From positions 1-34,838 of IMG/VR virus record IMGVR_UViG_3300005613_003241: DNA of 34,838 bases. One strand, written 5' to 3'. Positions within the stretch are counted from its first letter, which is position 1. Every line of letters starts with the position of its first letter. Shown piece by piece: positions 1,090-34,275 of this stretch. The notes under the pieces are model-generated. The model did no database searches, was not told the origin of the DNA, and saw only the letters and a list, made by a program, of their open reading frames with translations. The translations under genes were made by a program, and so were the position numbers. The DNA is from a virus.

Positions 1090-1140
1090 GTGAACTACCC
1101 CGACCCTAAAGAGGTCGGAGCTTCCCGCTTCATCCTAAGC
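1090..1140 (-). ncRNA. Predicted omegaRNA 3' scaffold of TnpB element
   Basis: The minus strand at the end of tnpB forms a perfect 8-bp stem (one G-U pair) with a 7-base TCTTTAG loop, followed by GTAGTTCAC. This matches the conserved right-end architecture in which the omegaRNA scaffold ends in a TTCAC-type tip and the adjoining host DNA serves as guide. The expected guide is then the complement of about 1070-1089, the end of the plus-strand gene. The 5' end of the RNA cannot be placed and probably lies inside tnpB. Confidence 0.6.
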
Positions 1141-2213
1141 CGAGAGATAGTTCCCTCGGTTTTGTTTCTCAGTCTGCGGGCTTTACTTTCCGTAGTTCCT
1201 ACGGTAGCTGTTTTCTTACCTTGCAGCAAGATCATTTTCGCCGCATTCACATCCCGATCATGGTGAACACCACACTCAGGGCAATCCCACTCACGATCCT
1301 TCAATGCCAGGTCTTGTTTGATGAAATAACAATCGCTGCAAGTTTTACTTGATGGAAAGAACCGATCTATCTTTACGATAGTCCCACCATGCCAAGCTGC
1401 CTTATACTCAAGCTGTCGTGTCAGTTCACACCAACCACAATCTGAAATTGCTCCAGCAAGACAATGGTTTTTCATCATATTTTTGACAGTAAGACTTTCC
1501 AGATAGATGACTTGGTTTTCGTCAATCAACCTTCTTGTGGTTTGGTGCAAGTGATTATTCCTCACATCCTTTGCTTTCTGGTGTAGTCCCGCCAACTTGC
1601 GACGAAGTTTCTCGATTCGCTTGGACTTCTTGTTGGTGGTCTTGTGCCTCCGTTTGCTTAGTTTGCGTTGTGTTCTCTTTATTTTGTTCTTCAAGGACTT
1701 GAACGGTCTAATGTTCTCGTATTCCTTGCCATCACTGTCCACTACCAAAGTCTTGATCCCAAGATCAATGCCAATTTCCCTCTTTGTTTTCTTGTGCTGT
1801 TTGATTTCCTTCTCAACCATCAGCGTGCAATAGTATTGCCCACTCTTATTTTTTGTGATCGTAGCGAAGGAGATTTCTTCATTGACTGGTCGATGGACCT
1901 TGCACTTGATGCCTTCCAAGAACTTTGGAATTACAAGTCTGCCTTCGACCAGTCTGATGTTTTGCGGTACACGAAAACTTTGCTTGTCATGCTCATTCTT
2001 AAACTTTGGAAACTTGGCTCGTTTTTCAAAGAAATTACCATAAGCAGCATCCAAGTTCTTGATTGCTTGTTGCAGGCTTTGGCTATTAACTTCTTTTAAC
2101 CAGACCAGCCCTTTCTTGAGTTCCGTGAGTTCTTTGCAATCTCGGACAAAGTTGTTTGACCTTCCTGTTGTGAGGTATTCTTTCTTGCGTCGAGCGAGAA
2201 AATAATTATACAA
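1095..2213 (-). CDS. tnpB: TnpB-family RNA-guided nuclease, N-terminally truncated
   Basis: This is a 372-residue TnpB (OrfB, IS200/IS605 family; ancestral relatives of Cas12). RuvC-I is at IGIDLGIK (Asp150), RuvC-II at VIYLESL (Glu239), the zinc ribbon uses Cys292/295 and Cys311/314, and RuvC-III is at HHDRDVNAA (Asp321). The catalytic triad and all four cysteines are therefore present. The C-terminal codons overlap the right-end hairpin, as is normal where the omegaRNA comes from the 3' end of the gene. The start given is a TTG (MYNYFLARRK). The real N-terminus, typical of the family, is still readable upstream in frame (KFRLCPNKE, stop, RILLSKHFGCSRFLYNYF) but is interrupted by TAA at 2255-2253. 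The protein as drawn lacks about 30 N-terminal residues and is probably impaired unless translation restarts or the stop is read through. Confidence 0.9.
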   Translation of the reverse strand: MYNYFLARRKKEYLTTGRSNNFVRDCKELTELKKGLVWLKEVNSQSLQQAIKNLDAAYGNFFEKRAKFPKFKNEHDKQSFRVPQNIRLVEGRLVIPKFLEGIKCKVHRPVNEEISFATITKNKSGQYYCTLMVEKEIKQHKKTKREIGIDLGIKTLVVDSDGKEYENIRPFKSLKNKIKRTQRKLSKRRHKTTNKKSKRIEKLRRKLAGLHQKAKDVRNNHLHQTTRRLIDENQVIYLESLTVKNMMKNHCLAGAISDCGWCELTRQLEYKAAWHGGTIVKIDRFFPSSKTCSDCYFIKQDLALKDREWDCPECGVHHDRDVNAAKMILLQGKKTATVGTTESKARRLRNKTEGTISRLRMKREAPTSLGSG

Positions 2214-11504: not shown

Positions 11505-13115
11505 CTAAGAGTATATTTCGTCGAGTTGGGCCTGATATTCACTCGGATTGTACGGTTTATCGGACTTAATGCTATCAATGGCATCTTTGGTGATTTCGAT
11601 AGCTCGATTTTTGTTACCCGCCTTGACCCAATACGGATATGGCATTCTTTCGATATCCTTTCCTTGAATATTCCGAGTATGATTGATATAGCTTTTAAGC
11701 AAGCATGTCGCAAGGTTTGTGTTACACCAACCGATGATATAGTATAGTTCCTCTTTACCGACCCCCTCTAGGAGAAAACCGCAGGGCGAACTACTATCCA
11801 GAATATATCCTGGTGGAAGATATCGCATGAATATCGTATTAGAAATAAGCGACCATGTAAACCCTTCTCTTCCGAAGAATGGTGCCCCACCGACACCATG
11901 AAGATACCAGTTTCCGTTGCGCTTAAATGTTTTGACAACATCTCCATCATCCTTCCAGAAGATTACCCACCGAGGCGAATGAAAGAATTTGGTTTTTATA
12001 GCCTTGTTGTAGTACCGATAATCTGGATGGGGTAACATAACGACCAGTGGTGAAGATCGTTCGCTAATCTTGACATTTCTTTGGGTCGCCTTTTGCTGTT
12101 CTAACTCGATAATGTTTTGCTTTTTTTGTTCCGACAATTGATTCAATCTACTGCGGCCAAGTTCTTTTTCGAGAGTGATAGGGTCATCGAAGTACTCGAA
12201 CGAAAATGGTTCTTTGATCGTTGAATTCTCTCCGATATTCCGTATGAAATACGCATTCTTCCCGGTCGTCATTCCACTTGTACAGACGGCAAGATCGCCA
12301 ATTTTAGGTCCGTCAAAGTATCGGGCATCTTCATTTGTTATTGTCCACGAGAGATTGTCTGTGAGAAGCATGTTACGTCTCAAGATGGGCACATCATTTA
12401 AGATCAGTTTTTGGGACGGGTCACTCGTTTTTCCAAAATGAACGATTACCATTGGGTACGATGTTTCCTCTGAGAAGTAATCTAGGTTCTTAATGGATAA
12501 TTGCCCATGGTCTAGCAGATAGTGTCGTAACCCTTTCATGGTAGGGATGGTCAAGAAGCTATTACTACAGATGAATGTAATCTTTCCATTAGGTTTGAGA
12601 TGGTCGAAACTCTTGACGAAGAAGAAGCAATAGCTTTCTTTCTTGATCTTTTGCCCGTCTCGCAGGCCGTATTGCTTATCGAGAGCGTTTTGATGTTCGT
12701 AGTTAATGGTGGCCCCAAAGGGCGGATTTCCCACAACCAAGTCGAACTCTACGTCTGGTTCCCATAGCAAGAAGTCGCCACACATAAAATTGTGATCATC
12801 AGGAAGGTCACCGAACTCTCGTTTGATATTCTGGATCAGGCGATCAAAAAGAACGGGGTCTAGCTCAATTCCGTAGATATTCTCCCGAAGAATATGCCTT
12901 AGGCGAGTTTTCGCACTCCCTTCATACAACGGGAGGAACGCTCGAATTAGACTAAGTACAAACGAACCATCGCCACATCCGGGTTCTAGCACCTTCGACT
13001 TAACCGTTAATGGCAAATTGGACACTATCTTATTAGCGATAGATTGTGGCGTCAAGAATTGTCCTAATTGTGATTTCGCCGACCTCTCATGCTTGCGTTG
13101 CCGATTCGTAAACAT
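11505..13115 (-). CDS. Adenine-specific DNA methyltransferase (gamma class, Eco57I/TaqI-like)
   Basis: This is 536 residues from ATG 13115 (MFTNRQRKHERSAK), chosen because GGAGG lies just upstream and because upstream codons overlap a different gene. The N-terminus QLGQFLTPQSIANKIV is the usual entry of this family. Motif I (SAM binding) is VLEPGCGDGSF at about 41-51. The catalytic motif IV, NPPF, lies at 130-133 (VVGNPPFGA). The C-terminal half (about 230-536) is a target-recognition region with SPRWVIFWKD and NHTRNIQGKDIERMPYP, typical of Eco57I-type enzymes. It methylates the N6 of adenine in double-stranded DNA. No restriction partner is visible, so it probably protects phage DNA from host restriction or marks it. 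Confidence 0.88.
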   Translation of the reverse strand: MFTNRQRKHERSAKSQLGQFLTPQSIANKIVSNLPLTVKSKVLEPGCGDGSFVLSLIRAFLPLYEGSAKTRLRHILRENIYGIELDPVLFDRLIQNIKREFGDLPDDHNFMCGDFLLWEPDVEFDLVVGNPPFGATINYEHQNALDKQYGLRDGQKIKKESYCFFFVKSFDHLKPNGKITFICSNSFLTIPTMKGLRHYLLDHGQLSIKNLDYFSEETSYPMVIVHFGKTSDPSQKLILNDVPILRRNMLLTDNLSWTITNEDARYFDGPKIGDLAVCTSGMTTGKNAYFIRNIGENSTIKEPFSFEYFDDPITLEKELGRSRLNQLSEQKKQNIIELEQQKATQRNVKISERSSPLVVMLPHPDYRYYNKAIKTKFFHSPRWVIFWKDDGDVVKTFKRNGNWYLHGVGGAPFFGREGFTWSLISNTIFMRYLPPGYILDSSSPCGFLLEGVGKEELYYIIGWCNTNLATCLLKSYINHTRNIQGKDIERMPYPYWVKAGNKNRAIEITKDAIDSIKSDKPYNPSEYQAQLDEIYS

Positions 13116-13381
13116 CACCCTCCAACAGTGAACGAACTTCATTCCTAACTCTAATATCGGCAATATGATCGGTAAACTTGAGTTTATCTTCGATGCTTTT
13201 GATCCCTTTTCTGATATTTGGTGTCCAATTTTTCCGGTTACGCAAGTCTTCGGGCCGCCATGATTCACTCGATGTAGAACGATTCAGCGCATCGAGCATC
13301 TTCGCAAATTTTCTGTCTGTGGGTTAAGGGAAGGTCGCATGGAAAATCCACATCTGGAATCAAGTTGTCTAAATCGTTCAT
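13087..13381 (-). pseudogene. Small gene upstream of the methyltransferase, frameshifted
   Basis: From ATG 13381 the frame reads MNDLDNLIPDVDFPCDLPLT and then shifts. Removing one A from the run of four (plus 13309-13312) joins it to QKFAKMLDALNRSTSSESW and on to a natural end (RNEVRSLLEGDVYESATQA) at 13087, about 97 residues in all. The gene overlaps the methyltransferase start, whose Shine-Dalgarno lies inside it, so the two are translationally coupled. It has no recognised domain. It could be an accessory subunit or a regulator of the methyltransferase. The short homopolymer change may be a sequencing error. Confidence 0.55.
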
Positions 13382-15150: not shown

Positions 15151-16215
15151 TCATTTTTCTAGCGATTTCAGTATACGGCTAACAGACGCTTGATGGATGC
15201 ATAGTTGATTTGCAATTTGACTTTGCGTATAACGCTGTTTTCGTAATGAGAATACTTGATCTTTCACCTCTTTTGCTATACGTGGCCTACGGCATATCTT
15301 ACGTTTCGGCCTATTTTTCATATGATTCCAACGATCGCCGCTAAGAATCATAGAAACCATACTAGACGTAAGGTTCATCCTCCGGGCAATTTCTTTTTGC
15401 TGTAAAGAGTTATTTAACTCGTATATCTCTCGGACGTTAGTTTCAGTTAAAATAGAATTGTAATGCGTTTCGCCCCAATTCGGTGATTTGCAATACGTTT
15501 CTACATCAAGCTTATGCCGAAAACATGACCACTTTACATGCGGTCGTACCATATCTATGAAGTCAAAATACGATTTTCGACCTACGTAAATAATCGGTTT
15601 GTCATCTTTTGCTCTTACTTTGCTTATAATGTCCAGATCATCCCTTAATCGCTGTTGCAAGAAGATACATTCCCTCCATGCGAAACCTTGGGTATGAAGA
15701 ATGATATTAGCATCTTTTGCATCAGCCGAGCCGTCATCCATATACCAGACACATAAGGACAAAGCAGTTAATCTCAAATCAGTAGGCACGATTTTGACTT
15801 TCCGACCATTTCGTTTGACAAGATTGTTTTGGCTATCTCTGAGATACCATTTACGCCCTAATGACGTGAAAACGGGATGGCAATGAGTCGTATATACATA
15901 AGCTTTGTACGTATCTTCTTTCTGCTGGATATTGGTCGGTAAGCGATCTTTGTTATTAACAATAAGGTGCTTAGAACGCCGACTTCTCACATCACCATTG
16001 CTATATGGAGCCAATAATCTCTTGTGCCACTCCAAATATCCCTTTTTGTCATTTCCTCTACAATCATTCCAACTTTGTGTTTTTTGAAATTTCCAATTAC
16101 GATTTTTGCTTTCGATATGATGCAAAGAAGCATCCCCTAATAGAGAGCCTTCGATGATCTGTTTTTGGCTATCGGTCAAAGGTGGAAATGTTTTGAGGTA
16201 ATTGGCCCTTGGCAT
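15151..16215 (-). CDS. LAGLIDADG homing endonuclease with C-terminal helix-turn-helix repeats
   Basis: This is 354 residues. Two LAGLIDADG helices are visible: IIEGSLLGDAS at about 20-30 and TALSLCVWYMDDGSAD at about 150-165, with acidic residues (Asp28, Asp160/161) at the active-site ends. It is thus a single-chain, pseudo-symmetric enzyme. Unusually, residues 260-354 add two helix-turn-helix segments (QQKEIARRMNLTSSMVSMIL and YTQSQIANQLCIHQASVSRI). The enzyme would cut a long target site and spread by repair. It is free-standing, in the 102-base-scale gap region between the DUF3008-like gene and a tail gene, and no intron or intein boundary is seen. No ribosome site is clear. Confidence 0.88.
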   Translation of the reverse strand: MPRANYLKTFPPLTDSQKQIIEGSLLGDASLHHIESKNRNWKFQKTQSWNDCRGNDKKGYLEWHKRLLAPYSNGDVRSRRSKHLIVNNKDRLPTNIQQKEDTYKAYVYTTHCHPVFTSLGRKWYLRDSQNNLVKRNGRKVKIVPTDLRLTALSLCVWYMDDGSADAKDANIILHTQGFAWRECIFLQQRLRDDLDIISKVRAKDDKPIIYVGRKSYFDFIDMVRPHVKWSCFRHKLDVETYCKSPNWGETHYNSILTETNVREIYELNNSLQQKEIARRMNLTSSMVSMILSGDRWNHMKNRPKRKICRRPRIAKEVKDQVFSLRKQRYTQSQIANQLCIHQASVSRILKSLEK

Positions 16216-19861: not shown

Positions 19862-21415
19862 TCATTCATACGTAAATGAAACTGTTATCTGGTCAGGCCG
19901 AATGATTTCATAATATTGCGTAGTGACTTCGCTCCCCGAATTATCGGGATCGGTCGTTACAAAGGTTATGTCCGTTCGCTTAATCTCTCGAATATCCGAG
20001 AGCACTTTTACAATGTCGGCGTCTTTGAGATTGTCACCATAATCCCAATTTAGTAAGCCAAAGAAACCCGTCAGTCGTGTCTCGGCCCTAGCCTGAACCT
20101 CTTCTTGGAATTTCTTGAAAAAGTTGTCCATAGTGATCTCAACGATTACATCAACCTCAAGCACCGTACCGTCTTTGATGCATACATGATCTGTAATCAT
20201 TTTGTAATCATCCAACATATCAGCTAATTCAACTTTTAATCCGTCTGTGGCAATCTTTAAGCCGTTATCTCCATCTGCGGCTAAGACGAACAAATCAATC
20301 ACGTTACCTGCACAACCATGGTTTCGGAGTGCGGACGTAGACTTGCCTACCGAACCACTGAATGGCGTTGCAAACTGATCTGCTAATGTCTTGTAGTCGG
20401 TTCCCGTGACCGCACGCTGTTGCGTACGAAGATACGGCGGTAACTTCAAACGGATGTCTTTAATAGTGTCTCCGTTGTAACCGCCTTCGGCTTTCGTGTA
20501 GTTGGTGAACTCTACAGGAATTGAGATATCAAATCCTGGAATTGGGAAAGATCGCTGTCGCAGAATAACGTCGGATACAATGTTGCCAAATGTACCACCG
20601 CCACGGCGATAACTAATATCAATCGACGACCCACTCGGCGGAATAGCTCCCGCCCGGTTGTTGCCGAATGTTACAAAAGCTTCGTAGTCCGAATTAAACT
20701 GAATAAGATACTCACGTCTTGGTTCTGAGTCCGTGAAATAATCAACCCCCTCCCAACGTACTCCATCTACATCAAGTCTTACACTGTCATATATCACCGG
20801 TGATTCAAGTAATCGGAAACTTTGGTTTTGCAAACCCGTCCCAGAGAAACTGTCTACAAAAGTGCGGCCTTCCAATCCAACAATCGATGTGTTCGTAAAG
20901 CTTCCCGCAGGAATGATGAGGTTTTCATCAAAGATCGGATTGTTGTCCGAGTCGGCAGGAAATAATTCAAAGTCCGTTGGAATGTCATTTGCCACAACTG
21001 CCAAACGCACAGGTGCCGTCATCACCATGTCGGTATCAAGCAGACTACCAAGTGTTGCAGAGAAATTAGCCTTAGCGGCAATCGGTGGCGTAGGTTCAAA
21101 ACCTACCAACATCGCTAACCGAAAGGCGTTGTCAATCTCTGTCACGGTATCTATAAACACCTCGTTTGCTATTTGGTCCTGCTTGAACGAAAGCGTGTCA
21201 GCGATAAAAGCCCAGTTTTCTATCAACAAAAGAGCCAAAGATGACTCAATGAAATCATTAAAATCGTCAGCAAAACGCTCTTGCATGAATTCGACAAGAC
21301 GGGCCTTCATCGACCAAAAATCTTGATTGGTGTAGTTAACGCTAAACAACTTTGGCGTTCTAATCTCTTGCGATTGTGCGATCGGTGTCGAATCAAGATT
21401 ACAATTCTCTGGCAT
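19862..21415 (-). CDS. Baseplate wedge protein, gp6/J-like
   Basis: This is 517 residues. The N-terminal YTNQDFWSMKARLVEFMQER and the LLLIENWAFIADTLSFKQDQ segment, the EVFIDTVTEIDNAFRLAML helix, the YRRGGGTFGNIV turn, and the later KTLADQFATPF and LFVLAADGDNG segments are typical of the T4 gp6/P2 gpJ wedge family. gp6-type proteins form the inner ring of the baseplate, bridging the gp25-containing core and the peripheral wedge (gpI/gp7). Only a weak purine stretch precedes the ATG. The IsrB gene ends 30 bases upstream, so the native leader was probably replaced. Confidence 0.87.
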   Translation of the reverse strand: MPENCNLDSTPIAQSQEIRTPKLFSVNYTNQDFWSMKARLVEFMQERFADDFNDFIESSLALLLIENWAFIADTLSFKQDQIANEVFIDTVTEIDNAFRLAMLVGFEPTPPIAAKANFSATLGSLLDTDMVMTAPVRLAVVANDIPTDFELFPADSDNNPIFDENLIIPAGSFTNTSIVGLEGRTFVDSFSGTGLQNQSFRLLESPVIYDSVRLDVDGVRWEGVDYFTDSEPRREYLIQFNSDYEAFVTFGNNRAGAIPPSGSSIDISYRRGGGTFGNIVSDVILRQRSFPIPGFDISIPVEFTNYTKAEGGYNGDTIKDIRLKLPPYLRTQQRAVTGTDYKTLADQFATPFSGSVGKSTSALRNHGCAGNVIDLFVLAADGDNGLKIATDGLKVELADMLDDYKMITDHVCIKDGTVLEVDVIVEITMDNFFKKFQEEVQARAETRLTGFFGLLNWDYGDNLKDADIVKVLSDIREIKRTDITFVTTDPDNSGSEVTTQYYEIIRPDQITVSFTYE

Positions 21416-21445
21416 TACTTGTTTGCTTTCTGAAATCCACTAAAA

Positions 21446-22375
21446 TCAAAATGAATACACTAAACCACCAAATCTTTGTAGCAATCGTGTCTTGCTGTAA
21501 GATACGGAGAAATTATCGTTCCATTTAGTACGGAGTGTGATGCCATCGGCTTTCAGACTCCGAATTGAACCAACTACAGTTCCCCTCGTTCTATGACTGG
21601 ATTTCACTAAATCATAGTGACGAAAACCATTTTTCTCATTACAAGTCTTTGTTGGGTTACTTTCCCAAACTCTTGTCCGCTTTGGCTTTATCTGATATTC
21701 GCATCCAACGAGTTGGTTGCTTTCTACTATCGCACAAGCATCATGGCTATGTTTTTTGGTTAGGCCAAGATTTACTCTTGTTACTTTAGTGATATGCCCA
21801 AATGTCGTCTCATATATCAAACCTAACTTTTTAATTTGCTCTCTGAGATAAGTCTTACCAATCTCTACAAGAGAAAAGAATTTGCCATAAACATACTTCG
21901 CATGGTTAAAACTAACTTCTTCTACTTTTACTTTTTTGATGTTGAGTCTTTGGCTCAAATCGCAAATCACTCTAAGTATCGCTTCTTTTCTTTGTCTGAT
22001 ACTTGTAGCAATTTTGGACTTGATTCTATTATTGAATCTAGGTTGACGGTTTCTTAATCTAAACCGTCTTGCTTTACGATAATTCCTTCTTTGCTCTACT
22101 TTTCTACCCACATCCTGCCTGTGATCGAGTTGGCCGTGAAATACGACTTCATTGGTTTTGGTATTCTTGATAGCAGGGCCAACATACTTGGCACCGTCAT
22201 CCACACCAATCTCAAACTCACCAACAGGATTGTTCACTTTCCTATTGAGTTGAATCGTAAAGGGGACTACTTGCTTGACTTTCGCCCTACCTTCATGCAG
22301 CAGTTTTCTGCTGCGTGCCGGGTGCGTCGGCAACAATGGCTTGCCTTCACTATCAACTACAAAAACAATACTCAT
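21446..22375 (-). CDS. isrB: IsrB: HNH-less IscB-family RNA-guided nickase candidate
   Basis: This is 309 residues. The N-terminal PLMP domain reads VFVVDSEGKPLLPTHPARSR and LLHEGRAKVKQVVPFTI. RuvC-I is FEIGVDDGAKYVG (Asp59). An arginine-rich bridge helix follows at about 96-117 (RRNYRKARRFRLRNRQPRFN). RuvC-II is VKVEEVSF (Glu152/153). RuvC-III is HSHDACAIV (His211-Asp212). Only about 60 residues separate RuvC-II and RuvC-III, with no HNH domain, which defines IsrB as distinct from IscB. The C-terminal 95 residues match the target-interaction region (GFRHYDLV, RGTVVGSIRSLKADGITL, FSVSYSKTRLL). Characterised IsrB proteins nick one DNA strand under omegaRNA guidance. All three RuvC acidic residues are present, so this copy looks functional. 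It sits between two baseplate genes. Confidence 0.87.
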   Translation of the reverse strand: MSIVFVVDSEGKPLLPTHPARSRKLLHEGRAKVKQVVPFTIQLNRKVNNPVGEFEIGVDDGAKYVGPAIKNTKTNEVVFHGQLDHRQDVGRKVEQRRNYRKARRFRLRNRQPRFNNRIKSKIATSIRQRKEAILRVICDLSQRLNIKKVKVEEVSFNHAKYVYGKFFSLVEIGKTYLREQIKKLGLIYETTFGHITKVTRVNLGLTKKHSHDACAIVESNQLVGCEYQIKPKRTRVWESNPTKTCNEKNGFRHYDLVKSSHRTRGTVVGSIRSLKADGITLRTKWNDNFSVSYSKTRLLQRFGGLVYSF

Positions 22376-22580
22376 TTAAGAGTTTTCTCCTTTCGGGATA
22401 TTGGTGTCCTCGGCAATGTCGCCAACGAATTATCCAGAACTGGACAAATTCTGGCGTCCTCGTGTTGGCTGACGTAGTTGGACGTTTCACCCAAACAGCA
22501 AGGCTTAATTGCCAACTCGACCTCGACGCTTTTCAAACTATGTTTGATTTTAATGAATTTTCCCATTTGGTTGATTTCCA
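22376..22580 (-). ncRNA. Predicted omegaRNA (HEARO-type) of IsrB
   Basis: The 205 bases between the end of the small baseplate gene and the isrB ATG have no credible gene and contain nested stem-loops. CCAGAA/TTCTGG closes at 22434-22454. TTGG(G)/(T)CCAA closes at 22478-22494. CGTCC/GGACG can form a longer-range pairing with the same bases, suggesting a pseudoknot. Conserved-looking single strands include the minus-strand segment GTTGGCAATTAAGCCTTGCT. HEARO RNAs are known to lie directly upstream of IscB/IsrB genes with the guide at their 5' end. Here the guide would come from the end of the 22581-22907 gene. AGGAG lies at the 3' end of this region, 11 bases before the isrB ATG. Confidence 0.72.
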
Positions 22581-22907
22581 TTAACTGTTATTAGCGCCAA
22601 ATCTTTTTGCAAATTCTCCATAGTCCATCGTTGTCATGAACCGATAAGTCAAAACATCCTCTGCATGGTCGTAGTCTGTTGGTTCGCCATCCAATATATA
22701 GACGTTTACACGAGTTCGTATCCCTGGTTCCCTTTTCAAAATATGCTTTCCAAGCGGTATCTTCGTAGGAGTACACTCCGATAATTCCAGATACCGCCAC
22801 TTCGGTGGATTTTTTGAGTTCAAAACGACTACCGAAGACCCTAACCCGTCGGCCGGACCACCAATATACGTTGCGTCAAACTCATACCCATAACCCCCAA
22901 ATTGCAT
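22581..22907 (-). CDS. Small baseplate-operon protein, unknown
   Basis: This is 108 residues, MQFGGYGYEFDATYIGGPAD to the end GEFAKRFGANNS. It has a glycine-tyrosine-rich N-terminus and a central strand-rich part (KWRYLELSECTPTKIPLG, RTRVNVYILDGEPTDY). AGGAGG precedes the ATG. It lies between gp25 and the IsrB locus. The 22908 stop of gp25 directly precedes its start, so translation is coupled. I do not recognise it. Its position suggests a small baseplate-associated factor. Confidence 0.6.
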   Translation of the reverse strand: MQFGGYGYEFDATYIGGPADGLGSSVVVLNSKNPPKWRYLELSECTPTKIPLGKHILKREPGIRTRVNVYILDGEPTDYDHAEDVLTYRFMTTMDYGEFAKRFGANNS

Positions 22908-33894: not shown

Positions 33895-34275
33895 TTACGG
33901 GCAGGAAACCCCTAGGTCTTTAGCCTCGGGGAGGAACGCCCGCCTCCCATTATATGTTAAAAATTTGCAATCTTCTGATTTTGCACTTTGTGTCAACCTA
34001 ACGCCAGTTGAAACAGAATGCAAACTTATTCTTCCTTTGGAATTTCCGCCAACATAAACTATTCCATATTTAGTATGTTTGATCAAACTTCCTCTTTTCA
34101 ATCCCAGGCTCATAGTACCGCCATAGGGTCTGCGCCGACCTTTAGTTGATTGCAATCTGTGTAATTGCCTTCTGTGTAATCGAATCGGCGCAATACACAG
34201 AACTTGTTTGTTGTCTAGGTAGTCTCCACCTACTAGCATCTCCTCATCAACTGCTCGACACTGCTTGGGGCACAT
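33895..34275 (-). pseudogene. C-terminal fragment of an IsrB/IscB-type (RRXRR) protein
   Basis: This 126-codon frame matches only the region after RuvC-III in RRXRR-domain OMEGA proteins: RAVDEEML, then IRLHRRQLHRLQ, then RRRPYGGTMSLGLKRGSLIK, KYGIVYVGGNSKGRISLHSV and GVRLTQSAK. PLMP, bridge helix, RuvC-I and RuvC-II are missing, so it cannot be active. A right-end type hairpin (CCCCGAGG/CCTAGGGG, one mismatch, seven-base loop) lies at 33909-33931. The first five codons are probably not homologous, and the true junction lies near 34260. Its start overlaps the end of the partial gene to the right, whose C-terminus has apparently been replaced. It differs in family from the IsrB at 21446. Confidence 0.7.

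What the first reader, a model, noticed from the sequence alone, without database searches (positions are those of the whole stretch)
21430..22580. Intact-looking IsrB with HEARO-type RNA inside a phage baseplate operon
The protein has PLMP, bridge helix and all three RuvC acidic residues, with only about 60 residues between RuvC-II and RuvC-III, so no HNH. Directly upstream is a 205-base structured region without a credible gene. Few IsrB loci have been studied. This one lies between two essential baseplate genes, which suggests homing behaviour or an RNA-guided role in competition between co-infecting phages. The expected guide would come from the end of the 22581-22907 gene, which is phage sequence.
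Basis: partly seen in the sequence, partly recalled or inferred. Interest (0 to 1): 0.88.

Follow-up and report, generated by a model that had tools for sequence, protein, structure and literature searches.

The report
Phage IsrB mobile element with guide-RNA scaffold
Inside a phage's tail-baseplate gene cluster sits a complete 1.2-kilobase mobile element that encodes a small RNA-guided nickase (IsrB) and its guide-RNA scaffold; related phages carry it at other sites, always just in front of a gene's start codon, so it looks like a phage parasite that spreads without breaking genes.

Summary
The 309-aa protein (21446-22375, minus) is an HNH-less IscB/IsrB-superfamily protein with an intact D59/E152/D212 RuvC triad; its predicted fold matches DtIsrB best. 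The upstream region is a real structured RNA: a 223-nt scaffold with 12 covarying pairs and an H-type pseudoknot across seven sequences. It is not an Rfam HEARO: no hit at E<=10, while ten bacterial IscB loci score 83-159 bits. Seven related loci and one ORF-less deletion derivative occur in phage contigs. Comparing differing flanks and uninterrupted alleles defines a mobile element of about 1,169 bp (21428-22596, +/-2). At all six sites with both flanks, the insertion lies 6-12 nt before a start codon, at or next to a Shine-Dalgarno-like GGAG. Two related phages each lack the other's insertion. dN/dS is about 0.04-0.07. The left flank is usable as guide; a related phage has an uninterrupted allele matching it at 14/20 with the last 8 exact. 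RNA-guided nicking, homing or inter-phage competition is not shown. Viral IsrB/IscB was already known, so this is a new variant: phage-associated, no transposase, non-Rfam RNA, insertion at ribosome-binding sites.

The parts
21428..22596 (-). Whole mobile element (about 1,169 bp, ends +/-2 nt)
   Evidence: Blocks shared with L002, L005, L010 and L011 stop at these ends while flanks differ; empty alleles L050-L052
22376..22598 (-). omegaRNA scaffold (223 nt; its first GG lies in the flank)
   Evidence: 7-sequence covariation: 98.8% of cells paired, 12 pairs with changes on both sides, 0/500 shuffles as high; RNAalifold; z=-3.46; model R1 220.7 bits (the window is in the training set)
22593..22598 (-). 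S1 helix 5' strand GGCGCU, next to the guide
   Evidence: Pairs with 22525-22530 (AGCGUC); A-U in relatives is C-G here
22525..22530 (-). S1 helix 3' strand AGCGUC
22476..22517 (-). Helix AGUUGG (22512-22517):CCAACU (22476-22481) with inner hairpin
   Evidence: Compensatory in L012 (AGACGG:CCGUCU) and L144 (AAGCGG:CCGCUU)
22418..22473 (-). Long helix GUC.GCCAAC:GUUGGCGAC enclosing the pseudoknot
   Evidence: 100% of cells paired, 2 pairs changed on both sides
22434..22459 (-). H-type pseudoknot: GGAC (22456-22459):GUCC (22442-22445) interleaved with CCAGAA (22449-22454):UUCUGG (22434-22439)
   Evidence: 5 of its 10 pairs changed on both sides, 100% of cells paired
21446..22375 (-). isrB, 309 aa: PLMP/RRXRR, RuvC-I D59, bridge helix, RuvC-II E152, HNH-less linker NHA..GKFFSLVEIGK, RuvC-III D212, C-terminal target-motif-interacting region
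   Evidence: dN/dS 0.04-0.07
22597..22616 (-). Predicted guide region (20 nt up to and including the flank GG), the 3' coding end of the phage 108-aa gene; exact limits unknown
   Evidence: Position relative to S1 as in DtIsrB (PMC9581776); best match in L050 is its empty site, 14/20 with the last 8 exact; inference
21413..21427 (-). Right flank AGCAAACAAGTAATG: rest of the split site and start codon of the baseplate wedge gene
   Evidence: Joined to the left flank it reads ...RFGANK* with a TAATG overlap, as L050 reads RFGES*

Best explanation
The locus is a compact OMEGA mobile element of tailed phages. Shown: an intact IsrB-type protein preceded by a conserved structured RNA, with well-defined ends; the element occurs at different places in related phages, at the ribosome-binding site of a downstream gene, so that neighbouring genes stay readable (the left end supplies a stop codon, the right end leaves or rebuilds a purine-rich stretch before the start codon). 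Inferred: the RNA is transcribed with about 20 nt of the upstream phage gene as guide, IsrB loads it, finds the uninterrupted allele in a co-infecting or newly replicated phage genome that lacks the element, and nicks the non-target strand there; recombination with the occupied genome then copies the element in (homing), or restores it after excision. First placement at a new site is inferred to need a transposase in trans (IS200/IS605-like TnpA), since none is encoded in the element.
For: IsrB fold and catalytic residues; covarying RNA directly upstream; purifying selection; seven related loci in different flanks and a deletion derivative, L144, that keeps most of the RNA and the right end without isrB at the same gene junction as L005; empty alleles L050-L052 for the window site, L134 and L141-L143 for the L005/L144 site, L212-L215 and the window itself for the L010 site; reciprocal absence: L007 (the L010 phage) has the wedge gene uninterrupted and the window has the L010 site uninterrupted; six of six two-flank sites lie 6-12 nt before a start codon; guide-to-empty-allele match 14/20 with exact 8-nt seed in L050, 18/20 for L144 to L143, 17/20 for L144 to L141.
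Against: No expression or activity data. Guide-to-empty-allele similarity is also expected simply because these are homologous phages. IsrB is a nickase (PMC9581776), and nick-driven homing is generally weaker than homing by double-strand breaks (general knowledge). No consistent target-adjacent motif could be read from six sites. L002 and L011 have no uninterrupted relative in hand. The site preference could partly reflect selection against gene disruption. L144 is a single contig.
Confidence: 0.62

Rival explanations
1. Non-autonomous IS200/IS605-type transposon: a Y1 transposase supplied in trans moves it by recognising hairpin ends and a GGAG-like target; IsrB only helps retain it after excision and plays no homing role.
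For: IscB/IsrB belong to IS200/IS605-like elements; the left end has subterminal hairpins; S1 joins flank bases GG to an internal strand, recalling the IS608 cleavage-site:guide pairing (PMC5934647); L144 keeps both ends without isrB; the L011 phage carries a full TnpA+TnpB element elsewhere.
Against: No Y1 transposase in the element, the window or seven of the eight other records (several are fragments); the L011 IS605 has different ends; a right-end hairpin is clear only in L011 and L144.
Confidence: 0.28
2. The element no longer moves; the IsrB:RNA complex has been taken over as a regulator or anti-competitor system of the phage.
For: One intact copy per phage record, strong purifying selection, late-gene location.
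Against: Different insertion sites in related phages, a deletion derivative, and no guide to a foreign target identified.
Confidence: 0.07
3. Inactive relic or chance ORF with fortuitous RNA folding.
For: No expression data.
Against: dN/dS 0.04-0.07, 0/500 shuffles reach the covariation, full-length ORF in all complete relatives.
Confidence: 0.03

Closest known systems
DtIsrB and other IsrB nickases (PMC9581776; PDB 8dmb)
   Same: PLMP + split RuvC without HNH, linker motif FNHA..GK.FS.VEIGK, best full-length fold match, RNA directly upstream
   Different: 309 vs about 350 aa; 223-nt vs 262-nt scaffold; outside the sampled IsrB clade in the N-terminal tree; lacks the HRRQLH/YGG stretch of the sampled bacterial IsrBs
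K2IsrB (viral-metagenome IsrB assayed in PMC9581776)
   Same: IsrB from a virus; shows that viral IsrB is not new
   Different: Sequence not available here, relation untested; insertion site and mobility not described in the passages read
HfmIscB and TbaIscB (PDB 9k2z, 9k30)
   Same: Closest N-terminal sequences (E=1.6e-44 and 2.1e-44); tree sister of the family is HfmIscB (92/79, not starred)
   Different: Annotated as IscB with inserts between the matched RuvC stretches; this family has no HNH
HEARO RNA RF02033 of IscB
   Same: Same place (5' of the ORF); by eye shared motifs CUACGU.A ... AACAU..CGAGG
   Different: No Rfam match at E<=10 against 83-159 bits for ten bacterial IscB loci
Free-standing intergenic homing endonuclease genes of phages (general knowledge)
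   Same: Single gene between structural genes, presence/absence polymorphism, conserved-junction targets
   Different: RNA-guided nickase architecture rather than protein-only site recognition

Membership tests
IsrB | PLMP/RRXRR N-terminus | tested here: met
   PF14239 E=4.9e-43
IsrB | Split RuvC with D/E/D triad | tested here: met
   D59, E152, D212 conserved
IsrB | No HNH; short linker | tested here: met
   60 residues from E152 to D212; IscBs have an HNH insert there
IsrB | IsrB fold | tested here: met
   Best PDB match 8dmb, E=5.6e-25
IsrB | Structured RNA directly 5' of the ORF | tested here: met
   transcription not tested
IsrB | Groups with known IsrBs in a tree | tested here: inconclusive
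   IsrB clade (100/98) excludes the family; family+IsrB not rejected (AU p=0.19), family+DtIsrB alone rejected (p=0.0007); 170 columns only
IsrB | RNA-guided nicking | not testable with these tools
   needs biochemistry
HEARO RNA (RF02033) | Match to the Rfam covariance model | tested here: not met
   None at gathering or E<=10; positive controls
IscB | HNH domain and NF040563 cut-off | tested here: not met
   171.1 vs 175 bits, no HNH
IS200/IS605 transposon | Y1 transposase in the element | tested here: not met
IS200/IS605 transposon | Subterminal hairpins; insertion 3' of a fixed short target without duplication | tested here: inconclusive
   Left hairpins present; right hairpin only in L011/L144; junction ambiguous by a few bases because purine-rich bases occur on both sides
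Homing element | Occupied and empty alleles in related genomes with a conserved target | tested here: met
Homing element | Super-Mendelian transfer in co-infection | not testable with these tools
   needs a cross

The most novel reading that the evidence does not exclude
A phage-only branch of HNH-less OMEGA elements that has given up its transposase and spreads between co-infecting phages by RNA-guided nicking of conserved ribosome-binding-site junctions, its ends terminating the upstream gene and restoring translation of the downstream gene: an RNA-guided counterpart of intergenic homing endonucleases, possibly an HNH-less line arisen separately from the known IsrBs.
Probability: 0.3. Interest if true: 0.8.

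Novelty: new variant of a known kind. Interest (0 to 1): 0.58.

Why it matters
What IsrB and IscB do in nature is mostly open. Here the natural test is unusually clean: well-defined element ends, occupied and empty alleles in related phages, a predicted guide and a catalytic triad to mutate. If it homes, it shows RNA-guided nickases working as phage parasites, and it gives a small nickase (309 aa) with a new type of RNA scaffold.

Tried and rejected
Rfam HEARO in the window and five relatives: no match. DNA-level search of phage and plasmid records: no match; protein search of named phages: only distant RRXRR proteins, <60% identity, none covering 80%. Scan of 84,980 bacterial and archaeal species: only relatives at <=46% identity (the search used two peptide patterns, so distant members may be missed). 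The 69-aa ORF 22372-22581 over the RNA: no family match and broken by indels in relatives. First boundary idea (insertion after the full GGAG, with a target code in S1): withdrawn in favour of GG|AG, because the three empty alleles L050-L052 all read GG-AG at that point and L144's right flank begins AGGG; bases remain ambiguous by about 2. Reading a target-adjacent motif from six sites: no clear consensus. Covariance model R1 against bacterial IscB/IsrB loci: nothing significant (best E=0.5). Searches were input errors; one search was a report with a format error.

Full report
WHAT IS THERE. The window is a whole IMG/VR virus record of 34,838 bp. On the minus strand, between a 108-aa gene (22581-22907; upstream of it a gp25-like baseplate wedge gene, PF04965) and a baseplate wedge gene (19862-21415; PHROG 219), lies a 309-aa ORF (21446-22375). 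It is an RRXRR/PLMP protein (PF14239 E=4.9e-43). The PDB relatives are HfmIscB, TbaIscB and DtIsrB. In an alignment of 25 IsrB and IscB proteins D59 and E152 are invariant and H209 and D212 nearly so; IscBs carry an HNH insert between E152 and D212, this protein does not. Its linker FNHAKYVYGKFFSLVEIGKT resembles DtIsrB's FNHARDRNGKYFSTVEIGKT. An AlphaFold2 model (mean pLDDT 78.9, pTM 0.69) has DtIsrB (8dmb) as best PDB match, E=5.6e-25 over 334 columns.

THE RNA. Rfam finds no HEARO (RF02033) in the window or five relatives, even at E<=10, though the same search detects HEARO upstream of ten bacterial IscB loci. Yet the upstream region is a structured RNA: the window sequence folds with z=-3.46, RNAalifold finds 36 pairs, 12 with compensatory changes, and a hand-drawn structure with an H-type pseudoknot keeps 98.8% of cells paired with 12 pairs changed on both sides, 0 of 500 shuffles reaching either value, and far above the slid controls. 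Caution: the structure was drawn from these seven sequences, and shuffles ignore relatedness. The S1 helix (GGCGCU:AGCGUC here, GGAGCUU:AAGCUUC in relatives) marks the scaffold's 5' end; by analogy with DtIsrB the guide lies just 5' of it, in the end of the 108-aa gene.

A MOBILE ELEMENT. Protein, RNA-pattern and alignment searches of 2.9 million viral contigs gave seven related loci (L002; L003, L004 and L005, which are nearly identical in element and flank; L010, also held as L007; L011; L012, cut by its contig end) and a deletion derivative, L144. Identity to the window protein is 67-85%. Homology stops sharply at both ends while flanks differ. L144 joins the RNA (through CGUUGGC) to the last codons of isrB and the right end, at the same gene junction as L005.

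EMPTY SITES. In L050-L052 (wedge protein 66-74% identical) the 108-aa gene runs straight into the wedge start codon; all three read GG-AG at the insertion point. Joining the window flanks gives ...AGATTTGG|AGCAAACAAGTAATG, i.e. RFGANK* with a TAATG overlap, parallel to L050's RFGES*. So the element's left end now supplies the last residues and the stop of the 108-aa gene (...RFGANNS*). L142 and L143 read AAGGAGGGTTAAA where L144 is occupied. L212, L214 and L215 have GGAG before the start codon where L010 is occupied. The L010 phage has the wedge gene uninterrupted and the window phage has the L010 site uninterrupted. Insertion lies 6-12 nt before the next start codon at all six sites with both flanks (window, L002, L005, L010, L011, L144). 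For L002 and L011 this rests on flanks alone. In L002, L005 and L010 purine-rich bases occur on both sides, so a short duplication and a rebuilt sequence cannot be told apart.

FUNCTION. dN/dS is 0.04-0.07 for the four pairs where dS can be computed (dS 1.7-3.0, near saturation, so the ratio is rough). The predicted guide's best match in L050 is its empty site (14/20, last 8 exact); L144's guide matches L143 18/20 and L141 17/20. This is what homing needs but also what homology alone gives. No Y1 transposase was found in eight of nine records; the L011 phage has a separate TnpA+TnpB element with different ends. Several records are fragments. The preferred reading is RNA-guided nicking of the empty allele followed by recombination; the main rival is transposition by a transposase in trans with IsrB aiding retention.

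PLACE AMONG KNOWN SYSTEMS. By architecture, residues and fold it is an IsrB. In an N-terminal tree it is its own clade, outside the sampled IsrB clade, sister to HfmIscB with support 92/79; joining it to all IsrBs is not rejected (p=0.19). Whether HNH was lost or never present is open. Viral IsrB/IscB is known: K2IsrB was assayed, and over 16% of HEARO/IscB fragments in one survey were likely viral. I found no description in the searched papers of a phage-specific IsrB family inserting at ribosome-binding sites, but subscription journals and preprints are mostly missing from that library.

Noticed in passing
window 33904-34275 (-): C-terminal remnant of a second IsrB of a different lineage (55.6% identity over 108 aa to IsrB locus L276), ending a few bases before the start codon of the next gene (33890): the same insertion habit.
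   Followed up: partly
window 1095-2213 (-): TnpB-like RNA-guided endonuclease (NF040570, 299.6 bits) with no Y1 transposase found in the record.
   Followed up: partly
window 15151-16215 (-): LAGLIDADG_2 homing endonuclease with helix-turn-helix stretches inside the same tail gene cluster; with IsrB, the IsrB remnant and TnpB this segment holds four mobile-nuclease genes or remnants.
   Followed up: no
window 11505-13268 (-): Eco57I-type N6 DNA methyltransferase in the tail gene region.
   Followed up: no
L216:1486-3186 (record of L011): Complete IS605-type TnpA+TnpB element in a phage that also carries the IsrB element.
   Followed up: partly
L144:2159-2490: ORF-less deletion derivative keeping most of the RNA and the right end with a near-perfect hairpin; possible stand-alone guide RNA or decaying copy.
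   Followed up: partly
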